Source of the DNA: Nitrospirales bacterium LBB_01 | Lineage (GTDB): Bacteria > Nitrospirota > Thermodesulfovibrionia > Thermodesulfovibrionales > Magnetobacteriaceae | Reading direction: 5' to 3' | Length of the DNA: 64,000 nucleotides | NCBI GenBank assembly: GCA_004376055.2 | Contig: CP049016.1 | Location: 558,001-622,000, forward strand | Shown here: positions 1,384 to 58,167 of the stretch, piece after piece | Layout of the letters: every line of letters starts with the position of its first letter | Position numbering within the stretch: the first letter of the stretch is position 1 | Notes under the pieces: model-generated | Database searches by the model: none | What the model was told of the DNA's origin: nothing | Seen by the model: only the letters and a program-made list of their open reading frames with translations | Made by a program: the position numbers and the translations under genes

Positions 1384-2264
1384 GAGTGGTTGACATTCAC
1401 ACGCATGGAATTGGCGGGTTTGACACCTCAACTGCCTCCCGCAAACAGATTATCCGTATGGCTGAGGTTCATTTCCAGCACGGAGTCACTGAAATCCTGC
1501 CTACAATTTATAGTGACGAGACAGCGGTCATGCGCCTTCACATAGAGACGGTTAAGCGTGCAATGGAAATTCAGGCACAATCGGAAAACAAAATAACAAC
1601 TCAGGCTAAAATAATTGGTATAAATCTTGAGGGGCCATTTCTTAACCCCACCAAGTGCGGCGCATTAAACAGGCAGTCGTTTACTACGCCTGATGTTAAA
1701 GTCTTTGACCGGCTGGTTGAGGGGTTTGAAGATATTGTAAAAATTATAACGATAGCTCCGGAGCTGGATGGCGCAATTGAGTTAATAAAACACGTTGTAA
1801 AACGTGGGATTATAGTAAGCATGGGGCACTCTGAGGCAACGTACTCACAGGCTGAGGCGGGGTTTTATGCAGGGGCCACCGGAGTCACTCATTTATTCAA
1901 CGCTATGCCTGTGTTTCACCACAGAGAGCCGGGGCTTACCGGTTTTGCTCTTACAAATAAAGATATTTACATAGAGGTCATTGGGGATTCGTATCACCTT
2001 CATCCAAAAACCATAGAACTCATTTTTAACCTAAAACCGCCCGAAAAAATAATCCTTATCTCAGACTCCGTCAAGGAGGCTAAAACCACCCTTGCCACAG
2101 GCCGCATTGTTGATTCTAAGGGGACACTGATGGGCGGCTCAATGACTCTTATGGAGGCCGCTAAAAGACTGATTAGTCTGGGGTTTGACGAGCAGTTGGT
2201 CATGAGGACTGTTACCGACAATCCCCAAAGATACCTTAGTGTTTTAACATCTAAAATGGTGTAA
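1380..2264 (+). CDS. N-acetylglucosamine-6-phosphate deacetylase-like amidohydrolase (short form)
   Basis: A TIM-barrel metal-dependent amidohydrolase related to NagA, which removes acetate from GlcNAc-6-phosphate. The ATG at 1380 overlaps the upstream stop and has AGAGGA about 10 nt upstream; a longer frame would overlap the symporter gene heavily. Visible motifs are HTHG near the N-terminus, INLEGPF with the metal-ligand Glu, MGHSEAT, THLFNAM and the catalytic Asp in ISDSV. At 294 residues it is much shorter than E. coli NagA (about 380) and lacks the N-terminal beta-sandwich strands that normally precede HxHG. All recognisable active-site motifs remain, so catalysis is plausible, but the substrate could differ from GlcNAc-6-P. 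Confidence 0.8.
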   Translation: MRVVDIHTHGIGGFDTSTASRKQIIRMAEVHFQHGVTEILPTIYSDETAVMRLHIETVKRAMEIQAQSENKITTQAKIIGINLEGPFLNPTKCGALNRQSFTTPDVKVFDRLVEGFEDIVKIITIAPELDGAIELIKHVVKRGIIVSMGHSEATYSQAEAGFYAGATGVTHLFNAMPVFHHREPGLTGFALTNKDIYIEVIGDSYHLHPKTIELIFNLKPPEKIILISDSVKEAKTTLATGRIVDSKGTLMGGSMTLMEAAKRLISLGFDEQLVMRTVTDNPQRYLSVLTSKMV

Positions 2265-3252
2265 ATGAAGTAAACACAACCGGCCACACCGATAAAACAG
2301 CAAAAACTATCAGAAAAATGATTGAAAGCGCTGCCCATTTCTTTTGTGCATTTTCTACTACTGCGGTAGTGCCAGGCAGTCGTTTAAAAAACTCTGCAAT
2401 ACCCGTTCCCATTGCAAAAGCCACTGTGCCAAAAAGCCCTGCATACAGCGGGTATCCGACATAATTATACTGTCCTTGCAATAGGTCAAATGGGCAGTGA
2501 TGGGTGGGAAGCTCATAGTAGTATATTGAGATAAAGGATATGACAGATGCCAAAGATATTAGGAGATATGGTATTGAAAACGCAAAGAGTAAATACTTAA
2601 ACACAGCTGACTTTGTTCTAAGTGAGATGATTAACGAAACAAGCATGATACATGTAGAAATATAAAACACATACATCATTTGCTTTACAGGGAGAGCGGC
2701 AAGGGCAGAGGCGACGGTTTTTTCCTCAGCGCTAAAAAGTGAGCTGCAACAGGTGGTAACCATTTGAGGTTTAAGAGCGCTAAAGTAGTTAAGTGTCAAA
2801 ATGAAATCAAACAGTATCAATGGAGCAATCAAAAGCAGGAGTTTATACTTAAACTTAACCAGTGGGTAGTTTTCGCACCTTTGATCTATGTGATTAATAA
2901 AAAGCCAAGCGGATGAGACCACAAAGGTCAGGATTTTGGCGTATAAGACATACCAACCGGTGGGTTCAGCGTTAAGCGAACCGGTAGCGCACATAGCGCC
3001 CACAAACAGCTTGTGTATGTCATCGGCAGTAAACACAAAAAGAAAAAGCGACAGAACCTCAATAATCAAAGCAGTGTTGATAATTGTTGCAACGAGATAG
3101 GTTTTTTTTTCAAGTGTCAGCTGAAGCTCAGAACTGCTGGTAATGTCCCAGTGTCTTGATATTGATAAACCAACAAAAGCTGCAAAAAGTGCCATAACAG
3201 ACACAATGGCAGATGCAAGCAGGAGGGCAAGCACTCCGGGGTGAAGAATCAC
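2251..3252 (-). CDS. Polytopic membrane protein of unknown function, next to an ABC transporter
   Basis: 333 residues with about eight predicted membrane helices. I do not recognise a named family. Conserved-looking Cys/His features sit in loops: a Cys in GAMCATGS (about residue 87), a CC pair in TTCCSSLF, and THHCPFDLLQ near the C-terminus, which could bind metal or heme. The gene overlaps the ABC ATPase gene upstream by 4 nt (ATGA), so it is coupled to it, and it forms the last gene of the NosL/permease/ATPase cluster. The 3' end overlaps the convergent nagA-like gene by 14 nt. A role in metal transport or assembly of a metalloprotein is inference from context. Confidence 0.7.
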   Translation of the reverse strand: MILHPGVLALLLASAIVSVMALFAAFVGLSISRHWDITSSSELQLTLEKKTYLVATIINTALIIEVLSLFLFVFTADDIHKLFVGAMCATGSLNAEPTGWYVLYAKILTFVVSSAWLFINHIDQRCENYPLVKFKYKLLLLIAPLILFDFILTLNYFSALKPQMVTTCCSSLFSAEEKTVASALAALPVKQMMYVFYISTCIMLVSLIISLRTKSAVFKYLLFAFSIPYLLISLASVISFISIYYYELPTHHCPFDLLQGQYNYVGYPLYAGLFGTVAFAMGTGIAEFFKRLPGTTAVVENAQKKWAALSIIFLIVFAVLSVWPVVFTSFTPF

Positions 3253-3941
3253 CTTATTACAACCTCTTTGAGTAATCCATCTCTCATTTCCACTGTTTTC
3301 ATCACATGCGGTGAATCATAGACAAGGGGATCATGGGAGGCGATTATAATAGTTTTCCCCTGATGGTTAAGAGTGTGTATGATTTCAAGAAAATCATTGG
3401 ATAGTTTAGTGTCAAGGTGAGCAGTTGGCTCATCGGCAAGGATGATTTCTGGGTTATTTATTAATGCCCGAGCAATGGCTACCCGCTGCTGCTCACCGCC
3501 TGAGAGTTGTTTTGTTTTAAAGTCCTTTTTGTGAATTATATTTAGCTGCTCTAACACATTATTAGCGCGCTCTTTTATCTCAGAGTATGGCATGATGAGA
3601 GGATACAGAGGAAGCATCACATTTTCAAGCACAGTGATACCTTTTATAAGGTTAAATTGCTGGAATATAAAACCGAAAGTACTTCGCCGTATCTCTGTAA
3701 GAAACCGCTCAGGGAGTTTTGCCACATCTCTTTGTCCCACTATGATTTTCCCTGAAGTTGGACGGGACATGCAGCCGATTTGACCTAAAAGCGTAGTCTT
3801 ACCTGAGCCGCTCGGGCCCTTAAACACTACAAACTCTCCTCTGAATACCTCAAAAGATACATCCGTAAGCGCCCTCATCTCATCAGGAAGCCCTGAGTTA
3901 TACACTTTAGAGACATTCTCTACTTTTACTAAAATATCCAA
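3249..3941 (-). CDS. ABC transporter ATP-binding protein, MacB/LolD type
   Basis: A 230-residue cytoplasmic ATPase. Walker A is GPSGSGKTT (about residues 38-46), the Q-loop FQQFN, the signature LSGGEQQRV, Walker B IILADEP and the H-switch SHD; all catalytic residues are present. The sequence belongs to the LolD/MacB/FtsE branch, which works with FtsX-like permeases rather than with import permeases. The permease gene lies 4 nt upstream and the polytopic gene overlaps downstream. With NosL nearby the complex may export or insert a metal-related substrate, in the spirit of NosFY, but the permease type differs. Confidence 0.9.
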
Positions 3942-3945
3942 TCGC

Positions 3946-5109
3946 CTACATCCTCATAATTGTATCGGGGTCAGTTATCGCAGCTTTCCATGAGGGCACC
4001 ACAGTGCTTACCACATAGGGGACAACTGTCAGAAAGAAAATTGAAAACACATGATAGATGTTAATATACGGAATTGGTTGAAAAGGCGGAAATAGAACCG
4101 ACCATCCTTTAAGCACCGGGCCAAAAAGTACCGCTCCAAATAAAAACACATGAATGTAGGCAAATATAAGCCCTGTAAGAAATGACACAAGGGAGACCAC
4201 CGTGCCCTCCCAGAATTTTAACTTAAGCACGTCAGAGGTTTCCCAGCCGATAGCTTTAAGAATACCTATCTCCTGTTTTTCTCGAGCACTTAGACCGGTT
4301 GCCTTATCCCACACAAATATAGCAAACGCAAGCAGCGCTCCAAAAAACATCGTGACAATCATTCCCCCGCGCCAGTTAAACACGCTGTCATAGGTACGAA
4401 TTATGTCGCCTTTGAGTATAATTCGAGTGTCAGGAAAGGCTCTTGCTATTTTCCGGGCGACCGTTTGAATTTCCGTATCGTTATAGACCTCCACGACTAA
4501 ATCTGTGGCACGGTCTTTGGGAATATCAAAGAAAGTAATCAGATCGTCTTTGTCCATAATTATCAGGTCATTGGTAAGCATTGCCGATGTGCTGTCAAAA
4601 ATCCCAACGGTTTTAAGCGAGATACTCTTACCCTCGCCTATAGCAAGAAACATGGTGTCGTTAAAGTTTAATTTTCTAAGCTCTGCCACACCTTTACCCA
4701 CGGCACACTCTCCCGTTCCCTGCGGAAGTTTACCGTTTAGAAGTTTAAGAGTTGGCAGCTCCTTTGTAAGACCCATGACTGTATAATTAGCACGAGTAAG
4801 TGAGTCATAGTAGTAACCCCAGTATCGGGGTAGCACCTTACCAACGCCGGCAATTGAGGAAATTGTATCAACATAACTGAGCGGTATTAAATCATGTCTG
4901 CCCACAGAAAGTCTTTGAACAATTATCTCAGGTGATTCGTAAAAAACGTTCATTGCCTCCACTTTAAACGCATTGGTAAGAAACAGTATGGAGCTTATTA
5001 TGGCAATTATTATACTAAAGACTACAATTATGGCGAGGTTTTTATATTTTTTCCTAATCAAGGAGGAAATTGCATATTCAAGTATCTTATTGTGTCCCCA
5101 GTCTGCCAT
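3946..5109 (-). CDS. ABC transporter permease, FtsX/MacB family
   Basis: 387 residues with the MacB/LolC layout: one N-terminal helix (IIVVFSIIIAIISSILFL, about residues 25-43), a large extracytoplasmic domain of about 200 residues, then three C-terminal helices. The cytoplasmic motif SAREKQEIGILKAIGW before the last helices is the classic FtsX-family coupling segment. The start at 5109 (MADWGHNK) was chosen over an in-frame start at 5157 because AGGAG lies upstream of it, although the 14-nt spacing is long. It pairs with the ATPase 4 nt downstream. Its upstream partners appear to have been separated from it by the CHASE2 gene and a miniature element. Confidence 0.85.
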   Translation of the reverse strand: MADWGHNKILEYAISSLIRKKYKNLAIIVVFSIIIAIISSILFLTNAFKVEAMNVFYESPEIIVQRLSVGRHDLIPLSYVDTISSIAGVGKVLPRYWGYYYDSLTRANYTVMGLTKELPTLKLLNGKLPQGTGECAVGKGVAELRKLNFNDTMFLAIGEGKSISLKTVGIFDSTSAMLTNDLIIMDKDDLITFFDIPKDRATDLVVEVYNDTEIQTVARKIARAFPDTRIILKGDIIRTYDSVFNWRGGMIVTMFFGALLAFAIFVWDKATGLSAREKQEIGILKAIGWETSDVLKLKFWEGTVVSLVSFLTGLIFAYIHVFLFGAVLFGPVLKGWSVLFPPFQPIPYINIYHVFSIFFLTVVPYVVSTVVPSWKAAITDPDTIMRM

Positions 5110-5338
5110 AAAAATAATTGTAACTCCTCTTGCATTTAAGCAATTGCAAAACACCATACTCCAAAATAGAGCCCATCTGCTTTCTAATGTCAGTATAACA
5201 ACTGCCCACTCTCTGCGTCAACTTTGTTGTTCCGCCCTTTTTTTACAATTAGACGCTTACTCTTTATCACTTTTTACACAGTTATATGTAACATTTAAAA
5301 AATATGATAATTACTGGTAATATTATGAGATAATGATA

Positions 5339-5574
5339 AATGCTTATTGAGTTAACTCCGGTAGAGTGTTTTCATGGTTCTAAGGAGGTAGGTTTCTATG
5401 TTTTTTAAAGTGGAAAAAAGGACTGGATTCCCGCTCGTAGGCGGGAATGACAAGAAAAACGGCGGGAATGACAAGGATGGGAGCGATTTTACAGGGAATC
5501 CCCTTTAGGGGAGGTCATTCCTGCGAAGGCAGGAATCCAGTTTTTTTGTTAATGGAGTTAACTGCATAGTCAAT
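5339..5574. mobile_element. Miniature inverted-repeat element, copy 1 (inverted relative to copies 2-4)
   Basis: Bounded by imperfect 21-nt terminal inverted repeats, AATGCTTATTGAGTTAACTC(C) on the left and GGAGTTAACTGCATAGTCAA(T) on the right, matching at 16 of 21 positions. Exact 8-bp direct repeats TAATGATA flank it at 5331-5338 and 5575-5582. Inside are two hairpins, ATTCCCGCTCGTAGGCGGGA(AT) and ATTCCTGCGAAGGCAGGAAT, joined by repeats of GGCGGGAATGACAA. No coding sequence is present, so it must have moved using a transposase encoded elsewhere. The right target duplication contains the start codon of the CHASE2 gene. Confidence 0.85.
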
Positions 5575-5576
5575 TA

Positions 5577-6671
5577 ATGATAATTCATTTAAGATATAAA
5601 TATTTTTTTCTGTTATCTTTTTTAATAGCATATTTTGTATCTGATGTTTCATTTATAATCAGAGAATATCTTCCTATCATAGACGATTACCTTTATGGCA
5701 GGCGGTTTCCAACTATGAGTAAGAGCACAACCCCGATACTCATTGTCGAAATAGATGACGAAACTGTTAAGCGATATGGTTATTTGCCATATAAGCGTTC
5801 TTCATATGGCGAGGTTATTTCAAGGATTCTTGAAGGGAAACCAAAAGTCCTTGGTATAGATATTTTTTTCTATAAGATTAGAGACCTTAATGACGATATC
5901 AAACTTGTTAAAATACTTGAAAATGCAAAATCTAACGTAGTACTTGCCTATGAAAAAGATGAATTGGACAGATTACTATTAAATCAGCTTAGCTATAAAA
6001 CAGCCTATAGAAACAATGACAACGTTACCCTTGCAAACGCTAAAGTAACACATGTTTCCTATAATAACGAATCTTTTGCTATAGATGTGAATACCGATAC
6101 TTACAAAGGTAAAGACTATCTGCCATTTCCTTTTGAGGTAGTAAGTAAATATCTTGGCGGCAAAGCTATCCATTCGTTTTATAAAAATCTTTCATACCAT
6201 TATACATTAATTAATTATACCGACAGGAAATTCCCCTCGATACCATTTTGGAAAGTTAAAGACACAGAGCCAGCAGTTTTTAAAGATAAAATAGTGTTGA
6301 TTGCGGCAACTTCACTCCCTTTAGGCGATATACACCAAACTCCAATCTCAAAAAAGACGCCCGGCACGTACATTCTTGCTTATACAATAGATATGCTGCT
6401 TAACGGAAATTTCATCGTCCCGATAGATGAAAATCACCAGAAAGCTCTGACATTTTTAGCAGCTTTCGTAACTTCATTAATAGCGCTAACTTTAAAAAGA
6501 TTACCGGCTTTTTTTGTAACAATTTTTTCCATCATAGCGATAAAGCTTGTAACGGATATGTTGTTTCATGATTACCTGATATACATGTATTTTGTGCCTT
6601 TTTTGTTTGCCCTTCTAATTACACATCTAATTGTTATAGTTTATACAAACACCTTGAAATCAGTATGTTGA
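5577..6671 (+). CDS. CHASE2-domain sensory membrane protein without output domain
   Basis: 364 residues: an N-terminal helix (about 8-25), an extracytoplasmic CHASE2 domain (about 40-270), then three closely spaced helices (about 285-360). CHASE2 signatures seen are ILIVEIDDETVKRYG, the small-residue strand VLGIDIFF, and DKIVLIAATSLPLGDIHQTP followed by PGTYILAYTIDMLLNG. CHASE2 receptors usually continue into a cyclase, kinase or c-di-GMP domain; here the protein stops just after the last helix, so it is an orphan sensor or a truncated gene. The start codon lies in the target duplication of the miniature element and no Shine-Dalgarno is visible. The 3' end overlaps a convergent gene by 12 nt. 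Confidence 0.8.
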   Translation: MIIHLRYKYFFLLSFLIAYFVSDVSFIIREYLPIIDDYLYGRRFPTMSKSTTPILIVEIDDETVKRYGYLPYKRSSYGEVISRILEGKPKVLGIDIFFYKIRDLNDDIKLVKILENAKSNVVLAYEKDELDRLLLNQLSYKTAYRNNDNVTLANAKVTHVSYNNESFAIDVNTDTYKGKDYLPFPFEVVSKYLGGKAIHSFYKNLSYHYTLINYTDRKFPSIPFWKVKDTEPAVFKDKIVLIAATSLPLGDIHQTPISKKTPGTYILAYTIDMLLNGNFIVPIDENHQKALTFLAAFVTSLIALTLKRLPAFFVTIFSIIAIKLVTDMLFHDYLIYMYFVPFLFALLITHLIVIVYTNTLKSVC

Positions 6672-6950
6672 GCCTCTATTTGGCGGCACTATGGAGCCTG
6701 CAGGAAAGTGGTCTATTGAGGAGGGAAAATCCTGAAAAGCGGTGAAAAAATCCGCTTGTGACGGATGCCTCGTATAACGGGCCTCCGTCCAAACCGCAAC
6801 ATCTGTAAGAGTAAGCTCACGCACCAACTGTCGTTTGGCGTCAAGCTGCACCTGCATGTGAGTCAGAGAATAAACCGAAAACACTGAAAACACCAACAAC
6901 AGCAGCGTTTCAAAAAACACCAAAAGTATAAAGGTTTTTGTTTTTATCAT
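6660..6950 (-). CDS. Small membrane-anchored protein downstream of NosL, unknown function
   Basis: 96 residues: an N-terminal membrane anchor (ILLVFFETLLLLVFSVFSVY, about 8-27), then a soluble tail with a TEARYTRHPSQADFF motif and a FQDFPSSIDHFPAGSIVPP segment. From memory, similar short proteins with the TEARYTRHPSQAD motif occur beside NosL and FtsX-type permease genes in other anaerobes; I could not check this. It starts 13 nt after the nosL-like stop, so the two are probably cotranscribed. Function is unknown. The Tyr/His/Arg-rich motif may bind a partner or a metal. Confidence 0.65.
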   Translation of the reverse strand: MIKTKTFILLVFFETLLLLVFSVFSVYSLTHMQVQLDAKRQLVRELTLTDVAVWTEARYTRHPSQADFFTAFQDFPSSIDHFPAGSIVPPNRGSTY

Positions 6951-6963
6951 TAGTTACATATTC

Positions 6964-7464
6964 TTAATGTTTTTTCATACTGTCATCGTGCATTGACATA
7001 CCAGGTATATCAGCCGCTGTTATCTCGCTAAATTTAAGCGTCTTATCACCCTTATGGTCAAGCATAAACCCTTTTACTTTACCCTCAGAAACAGGCACTA
7101 CCTCAGTTCCCATAGGGCCCTCGACGTTGCTTCCAATCACAAAGACTACCGAGTCTGCCTTCACGGTCTTTGCACTATAGTACTCGGTCACGTATATGTC
7201 GGATATATCAGCCTGAGTCTTGTGCTTGTTGTATTTAGCAACATCAAAGTAGAATTTGAGCATATCCTTTGGACCGTCAAAATACACATAGGTTCCGTCT
7301 TTAAACACTATCTGAGCTGCCCATTTTGGGAACGGCTTAACGAGCATACCGCATACAGCACACTTATCGTTAGCGCCTGGTTTTTTAGCATCATGCGCCC
7401 AAACAGGCATAGTTATTCCAAAAACTAAAAGAAACACTGCAGCATACATAACCTTTCTTAACAT
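6964..7464 (-). CDS. nosL: NosL family copper-binding protein
   Basis: 166 residues with a cleavable signal peptide ending near VWAHD (residue 24) and a NosL domain. The Cu(I) site motif CAVCGM gives Cys35, Cys38 and Met40. The downstream pattern QIVFKDGTYVYFDGPKDML is typical of the family. NosL proteins deliver copper for nitrous oxide reductase maturation, but NosL-like proteins also occur without nosZ, and no nosZ is present here. The C-terminal tail MSMHDDSMKKH is Met/His-rich and may add a copper site. A good Shine-Dalgarno (GGAGGGG, in the complement of 7466-7480) precedes the ATG. It heads the minus-strand cluster. Confidence 0.85.
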   Translation of the reverse strand: MLRKVMYAAVFLLVFGITMPVWAHDAKKPGANDKCAVCGMLVKPFPKWAAQIVFKDGTYVYFDGPKDMLKFYFDVAKYNKHKTQADISDIYVTEYYSAKTVKADSVVFVIGSNVEGPMGTEVVPVSEGKVKGFMLDHKGDKTLKFSEITAADIPGMSMHDDSMKKH

Positions 7465-31431: not shown

Positions 31432-31624
31432 ATTGCCTATGCAGTTAGCTCCGCAAACAAAAAAATGGATTCCTGCCTTCGCAGGAATGACAAGAAAAAA
31501 AGGAATGACAAAAAAAAGAAATGGCCCCCCTTTGTCATTCCCGCCTACGAGCGGGAATCCAGTCCTTTTAATTGTATCATTTGCTGACTGAAAAAAATCT
31601 ACAGGAGTTAACTCAATAAGCATT
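31432..31624. mobile_element. Miniature inverted-repeat element, copy 2
   Basis: Ends ATTGCCTATGCAGTTAGCTC(C) on the left and GGAGTTAACTCAATAAGCAT(T) on the right, flanked by the exact 8-bp direct repeat AACATTTT (31424-31431 and 31625-31632). It carries the hairpins ATTCCTGCCTTCGCAGGAAT and ATTCCCGCCTACGAGCGGGA(AT). It is almost identical to copy 3 but lacks about 19 bp. It lies between rlpA and rpmI, upstream of the promoter of the ribosomal protein operon. Confidence 0.85.
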
Positions 31625-47035: not shown

Positions 47036-47247
47036 ATTGCCTATGCAGTTAGCTCCGCAAATAAAAAAATGGATTCCTGCCTTCGCAGGAATGACAAGAA
47101 AAAAAGGAATGACAAAAAAAAGAAATGGCCCCCTTGTCATTCCCGCCGTTTCCATTGTCATTCCCGCCTACGAGCGGGAATCCAGTCCTTTTAACTGTAT
47201 CATTTGCTGACTGAAAAAAATCTACAGGAGTTAACTCAATAAGCATT
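47036..47247. mobile_element. Miniature inverted-repeat element, copy 3
   Basis: Same ends and hairpins as copy 2, with one extra 19-20 bp block near 47150 that repeats GTCATTCCCGCC. The flanking 8-bp words TATAATTA (47028-47035) and TAGAATTA (47248-47255) match at seven of eight bases, so the target duplication has decayed slightly. It lies between the CBM48 gene and cobT. Confidence 0.8.
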
Positions 47248-57957: not shown

Positions 57958-58167
57958 ATTGCTTATTCCCTTAGCTCCGCAAAGAAAAAAACTGGATTCC
58001 TGCCTTCGCAGGAATGACAAAAAAAGGAATGTCAAGAAACAAAGGAATGACAGAAAAAAGAAACGCACTCTCCTTTGTCATTCCCGCCCCCGAGCGGGAA
58101 TCCAGTCCTTTTTAATGTATTTTTAGCTGACATAAAACTATGTACCTGAGTTAAGTACATAAGCATT
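57958..58167. mobile_element. Miniature inverted-repeat element, copy 4, at the stop codon of an NtrC gene
   Basis: Left end ATTGCTTATTCCCTTAGCTC(C), right end related to GAGTTAAGTACATAAGCATT, exact 8-bp direct repeats TTATCTTA (57950-57957 and 58168-58175). It carries the hairpins ATTCCTGCCTTCGCAGGAAT and ATTCCCGCCCCCGAGCGGGA(AT). The right direct repeat includes the TAA stop of the NtrC gene. Confidence 0.83.

What the first reader, a model, noticed from the sequence alone, without database searches (positions are those of the whole stretch)
2251..7464. NosL-linked cluster split by a CHASE2 gene: possible new metal-handling system
On the minus strand the order is NosL, a small TEARYTRHP anchored protein, then after a plus-strand CHASE2 gene a FtsX-type permease, an ABC ATPase and a polytopic protein with CC and THHCPFD motifs. 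NosL plus a MacB/LolC-type transporter without nosZ is not the standard Nos set. The two halves look like one operon cut by the insertion of the CHASE2 gene and the miniature element.
Basis: partly seen in the sequence, partly recalled or inferred. Interest (0 to 1): 0.65.

Follow-up and report, generated by a model that had tools for sequence, protein, structure and literature searches.

The report
Uncharacterised five-gene periplasmic copper-handling operon
A widespread but apparently undescribed set of five bacterial genes, built around a known copper-carrier protein and an ATP-driven membrane machine, probably loads copper into enzymes outside the cytoplasm, and in this genome it has been split in two by an inserted, unrelated gene.

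Summary
On the minus strand lie NosL (6964-7464), a 96-aa anchored protein ("TRHP", 6660-6950), then after a plus-strand CHASE2 gene a MacB/LolC-type FtsX permease, its ATPase and an eight-helix membrane protein ("POLY", 2251-3252). POLY and TRHP match no Pfam, NCBIfam or PDB sequence family. A congener has the operon intact; in the window and two other congeners CHASE2 lies between TRHP and FtsX. Copper is the likely metal: NosL keeps its Cys/Met/His residues and adds a Met/His-rich tail, and neighbours are SCO1, PCuAC and FtrD-like proteins. POLY's invariant Cys/His residues (C88, C168, C169, H251, C253) are predicted to face the periplasm. The client is not NosZ: this genome has nosZ elsewhere with its own NosDFYL, and most carriers lack nosZ. 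Nearly all carriers have a heme-copper oxidase, a multicopper oxidase or both. Best reading: an ATP-driven periplasmic copper-delivery machine, working like NosDFYL but built on a different ABC type and two orphan families. No description was found in open-access literature. The biochemistry is inferred.

The parts
6964..7464 (-). NosL-family periplasmic Cu(I) carrier: signal peptide, CxxCGM, PMG, DHxG, Met/His-rich tail, no lipobox
   Evidence: Pfam NosL 8.6e-25; PDB NosL 7osf by profile 3.3e-13; conserved residues; tail M+H 20.6% vs 6.3% in body
6660..6950 (-). TRHP protein: one N-terminal membrane helix plus conserved tail LTDxxxWTEARYTRHPSQAD...FQDxPxSxxHFPxGS; orphan family; C-terminus changed at the insertion junction
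5577..6671 (+). stand-alone CHASE2 gene lying between the two halves of the operon; not part of the system
   Evidence: Pfam CHASE2 3.1e-31; close copies elsewhere in congeners; absent from this spot in L034
5416..5547 (.). palindromic repeat element in the inserted stretch
   Evidence: inverted repeat I2; core sequence 4 exact copies in window
3946..5108 (-). FtsX/MacB/LolC-type (type VII) ABC permease: 4 TM with about 205-residue periplasmic domain between TM1 and TM2; start re-assigned to 5108
   Evidence: Pfam FtsX 5.1e-10, lolCE 1.6e-10 sub-threshold, hydropathy, alignment of starts
3249..3941 (-). ABC ATPase with Walker A, signature and H-loop intact
   Evidence: Pfam ABC_tran 3.2e-33; motifs
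2251..3252 (-). POLY: 8-TM orphan membrane protein; invariant C88, C168, C169, H251, C253 and near-invariant H80, H252, predicted periplasmic

Best explanation
The five genes encode one envelope complex that handles Cu(I) in the periplasm and delivers it to cuproenzymes, chiefly the heme-copper oxidases and, in some carriers, multicopper oxidases. Proposed steps: NosL captures Cu(I) through CxxCGM, the PMG Met and its Met/His-rich tail (inferred from the family). The type VII ABC transporter (FtsX-type permease plus ATPase) uses cytoplasmic ATP hydrolysis to drive a periplasmic conformational change without moving a substrate across the membrane (inferred from the family). TRHP, a single helix with an extremely conserved unstructured tail, docks NosL on the permease (inferred). 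POLY offers a Cys/His site at the periplasmic face that holds, reduces or hands on the copper (the conserved residues and predicted side are shown; metal binding is inferred). SCO1 or PCuAC, often next door, pass the copper to CuA/CuB-type sites. In this genome a CHASE2 gene has been inserted between TRHP and FtsX, separating the two halves; whether the downstream half is still expressed is unknown.
For: Contiguity: 50 of 66 loci exact, 61 with TRHP, 62 FtsX, 64 ATPase, 54 NosL, median gaps 15-45 nt between successive operon genes. Pairwise distances of the five proteins correlate (Mantel rho 0.40-0.72, permutation maxima 0.11-0.21; this partly reflects shared organismal descent). Copper neighbours: SCO1 in 16 loci, mostly right downstream of POLY, PCuAC in 6, FtrD-like in 8. 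NosL residues and Met/His tail. POLY: confident 8-TM model (pLDDT 89.7, pTM 0.88); K+R sum 10.3 on one side against 3.4 on the side bearing all conserved Cys/His. Co-occurrence in Nitrospirota: COX1 in 24/25 carriers vs 99/172 others, COX2 15/25 vs 24/172. In 33 non-Nitrospirota carriers: COX1 in 24, and 8 of the 9 without it have a multicopper oxidase. NosZ in only 6/25 and 1/33.
Against: No biochemistry or genetics. Nine of 33 non-Nitrospirota carriers, several of them with SCO1 beside the operon, lack heme-copper oxidase, so the client is not one enzyme. COX1-or-MCO is common in non-carriers too (149/172), so that union carries little weight. Co-occurrence tests ignore phylogeny. Foldseek found no significant fold match, so no structural analogy supports POLY's role. 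FetABCD, a similar assembly, handles iron (PMC10783030).
Confidence: 0.58

Rival explanations
1. A copper (or other soft-metal) tolerance system: the MacB-like transporter and NosL sequester or export excess Cu(I) from the periplasm.
For: MacB-type transporters commonly export; related DUF2318-FtsX-ATPase modules can sit beside a P-type metal ATPase and a metal-sensing regulator (P. propionicus plasmid); HlyD/CusB-like protein upstream in two loci.
Against: No recurring copper-sensing regulator, P-type ATPase or outer-membrane factor among the neighbours of this operon; the recurring neighbours are SCO1 and PCuAC, which are assembly factors; carriers are enriched for COX1/COX2.
Confidence: 0.14
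2. A thiol-redox machine like FetABCDEF: ABC transporter and POLY relay reducing power for metal (perhaps iron) uptake or disulfide exchange, NosL being a substrate.
For: Same architecture as FetABCD (8-TM protein, ABC transporter, DUF2318; PMC10783030); some POLY proteins read CPFC instead of CPFD (L048, L051); FtrD-like follows POLY directly in several loci.
Against: POLY shows no homology to the membrane part of the E. coli DUF2318 protein (hhalign probability 0.5%); no FTR1-type permease or P19 seen beside this operon; SCO1, PCuAC and NosL point to copper.
Confidence: 0.15
3. A second assembly set for nitrous oxide reductase.
For: NosL family; the genome has nosZ; NosZ mildly enriched in carriers (6/25 vs 10/172).
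Against: The nosZ cluster has its own NosD, NosF, NosY and lipoprotein NosL, only 28% identical to this NosL; 19 of 25 Nitrospirota carriers and 32 of 33 others lack nosZ.
Confidence: 0.03
4. A lipoprotein-release (LolCDE-like) or other envelope-maintenance transporter with NosL by chance next to it.
For: FtsX permease scores best, weakly, against LolCE (1.6e-10, below cut-off) and the ATPase against FtsE/LolD.
Against: All specific models are below their cut-offs; NosL adjacency is conserved in 54 of 66 loci; copper chaperones recur.
Confidence: 0.04

Closest known systems
NosDFYL copper-loading machinery of nitrous oxide reductase
   Same: NosL Cu(I) carrier working with an ABC transporter that acts on the periplasm; copper delivery to a periplasmic cuproenzyme
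   Different: FtsX/MacB-type permease instead of the ABC-2 type NosY; no NosD beta-helix; adds TRHP and POLY; NosL is not a lipoprotein and has a Met/His tail; present in genomes without nosZ
FetMP-FetABCDEF / FtrABCD iron uptake system
   Same: 8-TM membrane protein plus ABC transporter; DUF2318 (FtrD-like) protein beside the operon in some genomes
   Different: no FetM/FTR1 or P19 seen here; POLY not homologous to the DUF2318 protein's membrane part; NosL, SCO1 and PCuAC indicate copper
MacB / LolCDE / FtsEX type VII ABC transporters
   Same: permease with 4 TM and large periplasmic domain, ATPase of the same family
   Different: below the cut-offs of all specific subfamily models; partners differ
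SCO1/SenC and PCuAC assembly of CuA in cytochrome c oxidase
   Same: found right beside the operon in many genomes; same presumed client
   Different: those are soluble or anchored chaperones without ATPase; here an ATP-driven complex is added

Membership tests
NosL (PF05573) | Pfam NosL domain over cut-off | tested here: met
   88 bits, cut-off 24
NosL (PF05573) | conserved Cys and Met Cu(I) ligands (CXM / CXXCXM motif) | tested here: met
   CxxCGM and PMG invariant in 16 homologues; motif per PMC6530538
NosDFYL nos assembly machinery | NosD beta-helix protein and ABC-2 type NosY beside NosL | tested here: not met
   FtsX permease instead, no NosD among the operon's neighbours; the canonical set lies elsewhere in this genome
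NosDFYL nos assembly machinery | nosZ in the genome | tested here: not met
   present in G000, absent from 19/25 and 32/33 carriers
Type VII (MacB/LolC/FtsX) ABC transporter | FtsX domain, 4 TM with large periplasmic domain between TM1 and TM2, paired ATPase | tested here: met
LolCDE / MacB / FtsEX subfamilies | score above the curated subfamily cut-off | tested here: not met
   FtsE 201 vs 264.85, LolD 190 vs 307.75, LolCE 40.5 vs 362.45 bits
FetABCDEF / FtrABCD | 8-TM DUF2318 protein homologous to POLY | tested here: not met
   hhalign probability 0.5% against one DUF2318 protein
FetABCDEF / FtrABCD | P19/FetP and FTR1/FetM encoded with it | tested here: inconclusive
   not among the Pfam families shown for adjacent same-strand genes, but only 25 families of each tally are shown
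Copper-delivery machine (functional class) | Cu(I) binding and delivery to a cuproenzyme | not testable with these tools
   needs biochemistry or genetics

The most novel reading that the evidence does not exclude
A previously undescribed ATP-driven periplasmic copper-insertion complex, in which a type VII ABC transporter, NosL, TRHP and the eight-helix thiol protein POLY together serve respiratory heme-copper oxidases and multicopper oxidases across Nitrospirota, Desulfobacterota and some Gammaproteobacteria: a parallel, with different parts, to NosDFYL.
Probability: 0.4. Interest if true: 0.75.

Novelty: new variant of a known kind. Interest (0 to 1): 0.6.

Why it matters
How copper reaches cytochrome oxidases and other cuproenzymes in largely anaerobic, sulfide-exposed bacteria, where free copper is vanishingly scarce, is open. 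A conserved operon with two unnamed protein families and an ATPase would be a concrete candidate for an energised copper-delivery step. It would show that NosL is a general periplasmic copper carrier rather than only a nitrous oxide reductase factor. It would also give a role to two unnamed families, one of which (POLY) has at least 554 matching loci in the genome collection.

Tried and rejected
NosZ client: rejected, because the genome has a separate complete nos cluster and most carriers lack nosZ. One dedicated heme-copper-oxidase client: weakened, because 9 of 33 non-Nitrospirota carriers lack COX1. Multicopper oxidase as general client: not enriched in Nitrospirota carriers (9/25 vs 105/172). 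POLY as split FetA: tested, no homology. Fold search of POLY: best Foldseek E 0.24, VIA Z up to 11.8 on half-length helical bundles, below the level the tool calls meaningful for such folds. TRHP fold: only the helix is confident (pLDDT 68). Plasmid search with POLY: no match. Literature: eight full-text searches found no description; subscription papers and preprints are not covered.

Full report
Observation. Pfam confirms NosL, CHASE2, FtsX and the ABC ATPase, and finds nothing for the 333-aa polytopic protein (POLY) or the 96-aa anchored protein (TRHP). NCBIfam gives only sub-threshold generic hits to the transporter. The PDB holds no sequence relative of POLY or TRHP, while the NosL profile finds solved NosL structures. 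Small corrections: FtsX most likely starts at 5108, and TRHP's last residues are changed by the junction with CHASE2.

One operon. TRHP is found in 27 of 60 related genomes. In the fetched loci the order NosL-TRHP-FtsX-ATPase-POLY recurs on one strand. A scan of 84,980 species' contigs with the POLY alignment gave at least 554 confirmed relatives. The best 80 lie in Nitrospirota, Desulfobacterota, Chromatiaceae and other Gammaproteobacteria, Acidobacteria and a few others. Of 66 of these loci with at least 4.5 kb upstream, 50 show the exact five-gene order; TRHP is present in 61, FtsX in 62, the ATPase in 64 and NosL in 54, with median gaps of 15-45 nt between successive operon genes. Tandem NosL pairs are common (28). 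Distances among the five proteins correlate across 58 complete loci (rho 0.40-0.72), although common descent of the host genomes contributes.

The split. In congener L034 the TRHP stop codon and the FtsX start codon overlap by one base, inferred from the coordinates. In the window and in congener L033 a plus-strand CHASE2 gene and some palindromic repeats lie between them; L032 carries a CHASE2 copy next to TRHP that reads in more than one frame. Close CHASE2 copies occur at other places in congeners, so CHASE2 is an insertion into the operon, not part of it. The repeat stretch upstream of CHASE2 differs between window and L033.

Metal. NosL keeps CxxCGM, the PMG Met and DHxG. It lacks a lipobox and ends in a Met/His-rich tail (20.6% M+H in the last 20 residues against 6.3% in the body). 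The published NosL binds one Cu(I) with attomolar affinity and supplies nitrous oxide reductase (PMC6530538). Neighbours of the operon are enriched in copper assembly factors: SCO1/SenC in 16 loci, mostly right after POLY, PCuAC in 6, and FtrD-like (DUF2318) in 8. Among the adjacent genes tallied no copper sensor or P-type ATPase recurs. Copper is therefore the likely metal; this is inference.

POLY. AlphaFold2 with 58 sequences gives eight long helices at pLDDT 89.7 and pTM 0.88. Positive charge is concentrated on the loops of one side (10.3 K+R on average against 3.4), so that side is taken as cytoplasmic. All conserved Cys/His (H80, C88, C168, C169, H251, H252, C253) are on the other, periplasmic side. 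In some relatives HHCPFD reads CPFC, which leaves a thiol-redox role open. Foldseek and VIA-align gave no convincing fold relative. I could not measure distances in the model.

Transporter and TRHP. The permease has one N-terminal helix, a periplasmic domain of about 205 residues and three further helices. The ATPase has Walker A, signature and H-loop. This is the type VII (MacB/LolC/FtsX) plan, whose members are known to do mechanical work on periplasmic partners (own knowledge). TRHP is one helix plus an extremely conserved tail that does not fold alone, fitting a docking peptide.

Client. The window's genome has nosZ with NosD, NosF, NosY and a lipoprotein NosL, and two cytochrome oxidases each with a SCO-like gene, one of these just below the SCO cut-off. 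Across 197 Nitrospirota genomes, carriers have COX1 in 24/25 (others 99/172), COX2 in 15/25 (24/172), NosZ in 6/25 (10/172) and multicopper oxidase in 9/25 (105/172). Among 33 carriers outside Nitrospirota, 24 have COX1, 20 COX2, 1 NosZ, and 8 of the 9 without COX1 have a multicopper oxidase. So the operon is not for NosZ, it goes with heme-copper oxidases most of the time, and it must have another client in some Desulfobulbaceae-type genomes. These tests are not corrected for phylogeny, and some genomes are incomplete.

Comparison with known systems. It works like NosDFYL, a NosL carrier with an ABC transporter acting on the periplasm, but fails that family's defining features (no NosD, no ABC-2 permease, not tied to nosZ). 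It resembles FetABCD in having an eight-helix protein with an ABC transporter and sometimes DUF2318 (PMC10783030), but POLY is not homologous to the tested DUF2318 protein. Eight open-access full-text searches found no description of the five-gene set. I therefore rate it a new variant of a known kind (energised periplasmic copper handling), with two unnamed families, and copper delivery as the likeliest but unproven role.

Noticed in passing
window 5514-5538, 31467-31491, 47071-47095, 57994-58018: The palindrome GGATTCCTGCCTTCGCAGGAATGAC occurs four times exactly (0.01 expected): a dispersed repeat of this genome.
   Followed up: partly
window 5577-6671; congener genomes G001, G002, G003: Stand-alone CHASE2 proteins of about 364-397 aa without a visible output domain occur in several copies at different places in the genus, one of them broken in L032.
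   Followed up: partly
L158:7241-8665 (G000:C1:3137241-3138665): A 474-aa protein with an N-terminal NosL domain and a long extra C-terminal part, inside a multihaem cytochrome cluster.
   Followed up: no
L094 and L046 (G051, contig C36): POLY appears to stand alone about 50 kb from the NosL-TRHP-FtsX-ATPase genes on the same contig (inferred by matching contig lengths), so POLY need not be adjacent.
   Followed up: no
L077, L082, L056, L058, L108, upstream of the operon: A second FtsX/ATPase pair with FtrD-like and a TPR protein, or with PCuAC, directly precedes the five-gene operon.
   Followed up: partly
L060, L073, L091, L096, L099, L101: A fused cytochrome c (CxxCH) and periplasmic-binding-protein-like protein of about 570 aa sits beside SCO1 and the operon in several genomes.
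   Followed up: no
L107, L117, L123 (genomes G228, G234, G240): Genomes without any heme-copper oxidase still carry the operon with SCO1 directly after POLY, so SCO1 there must serve something else.
   Followed up: partly
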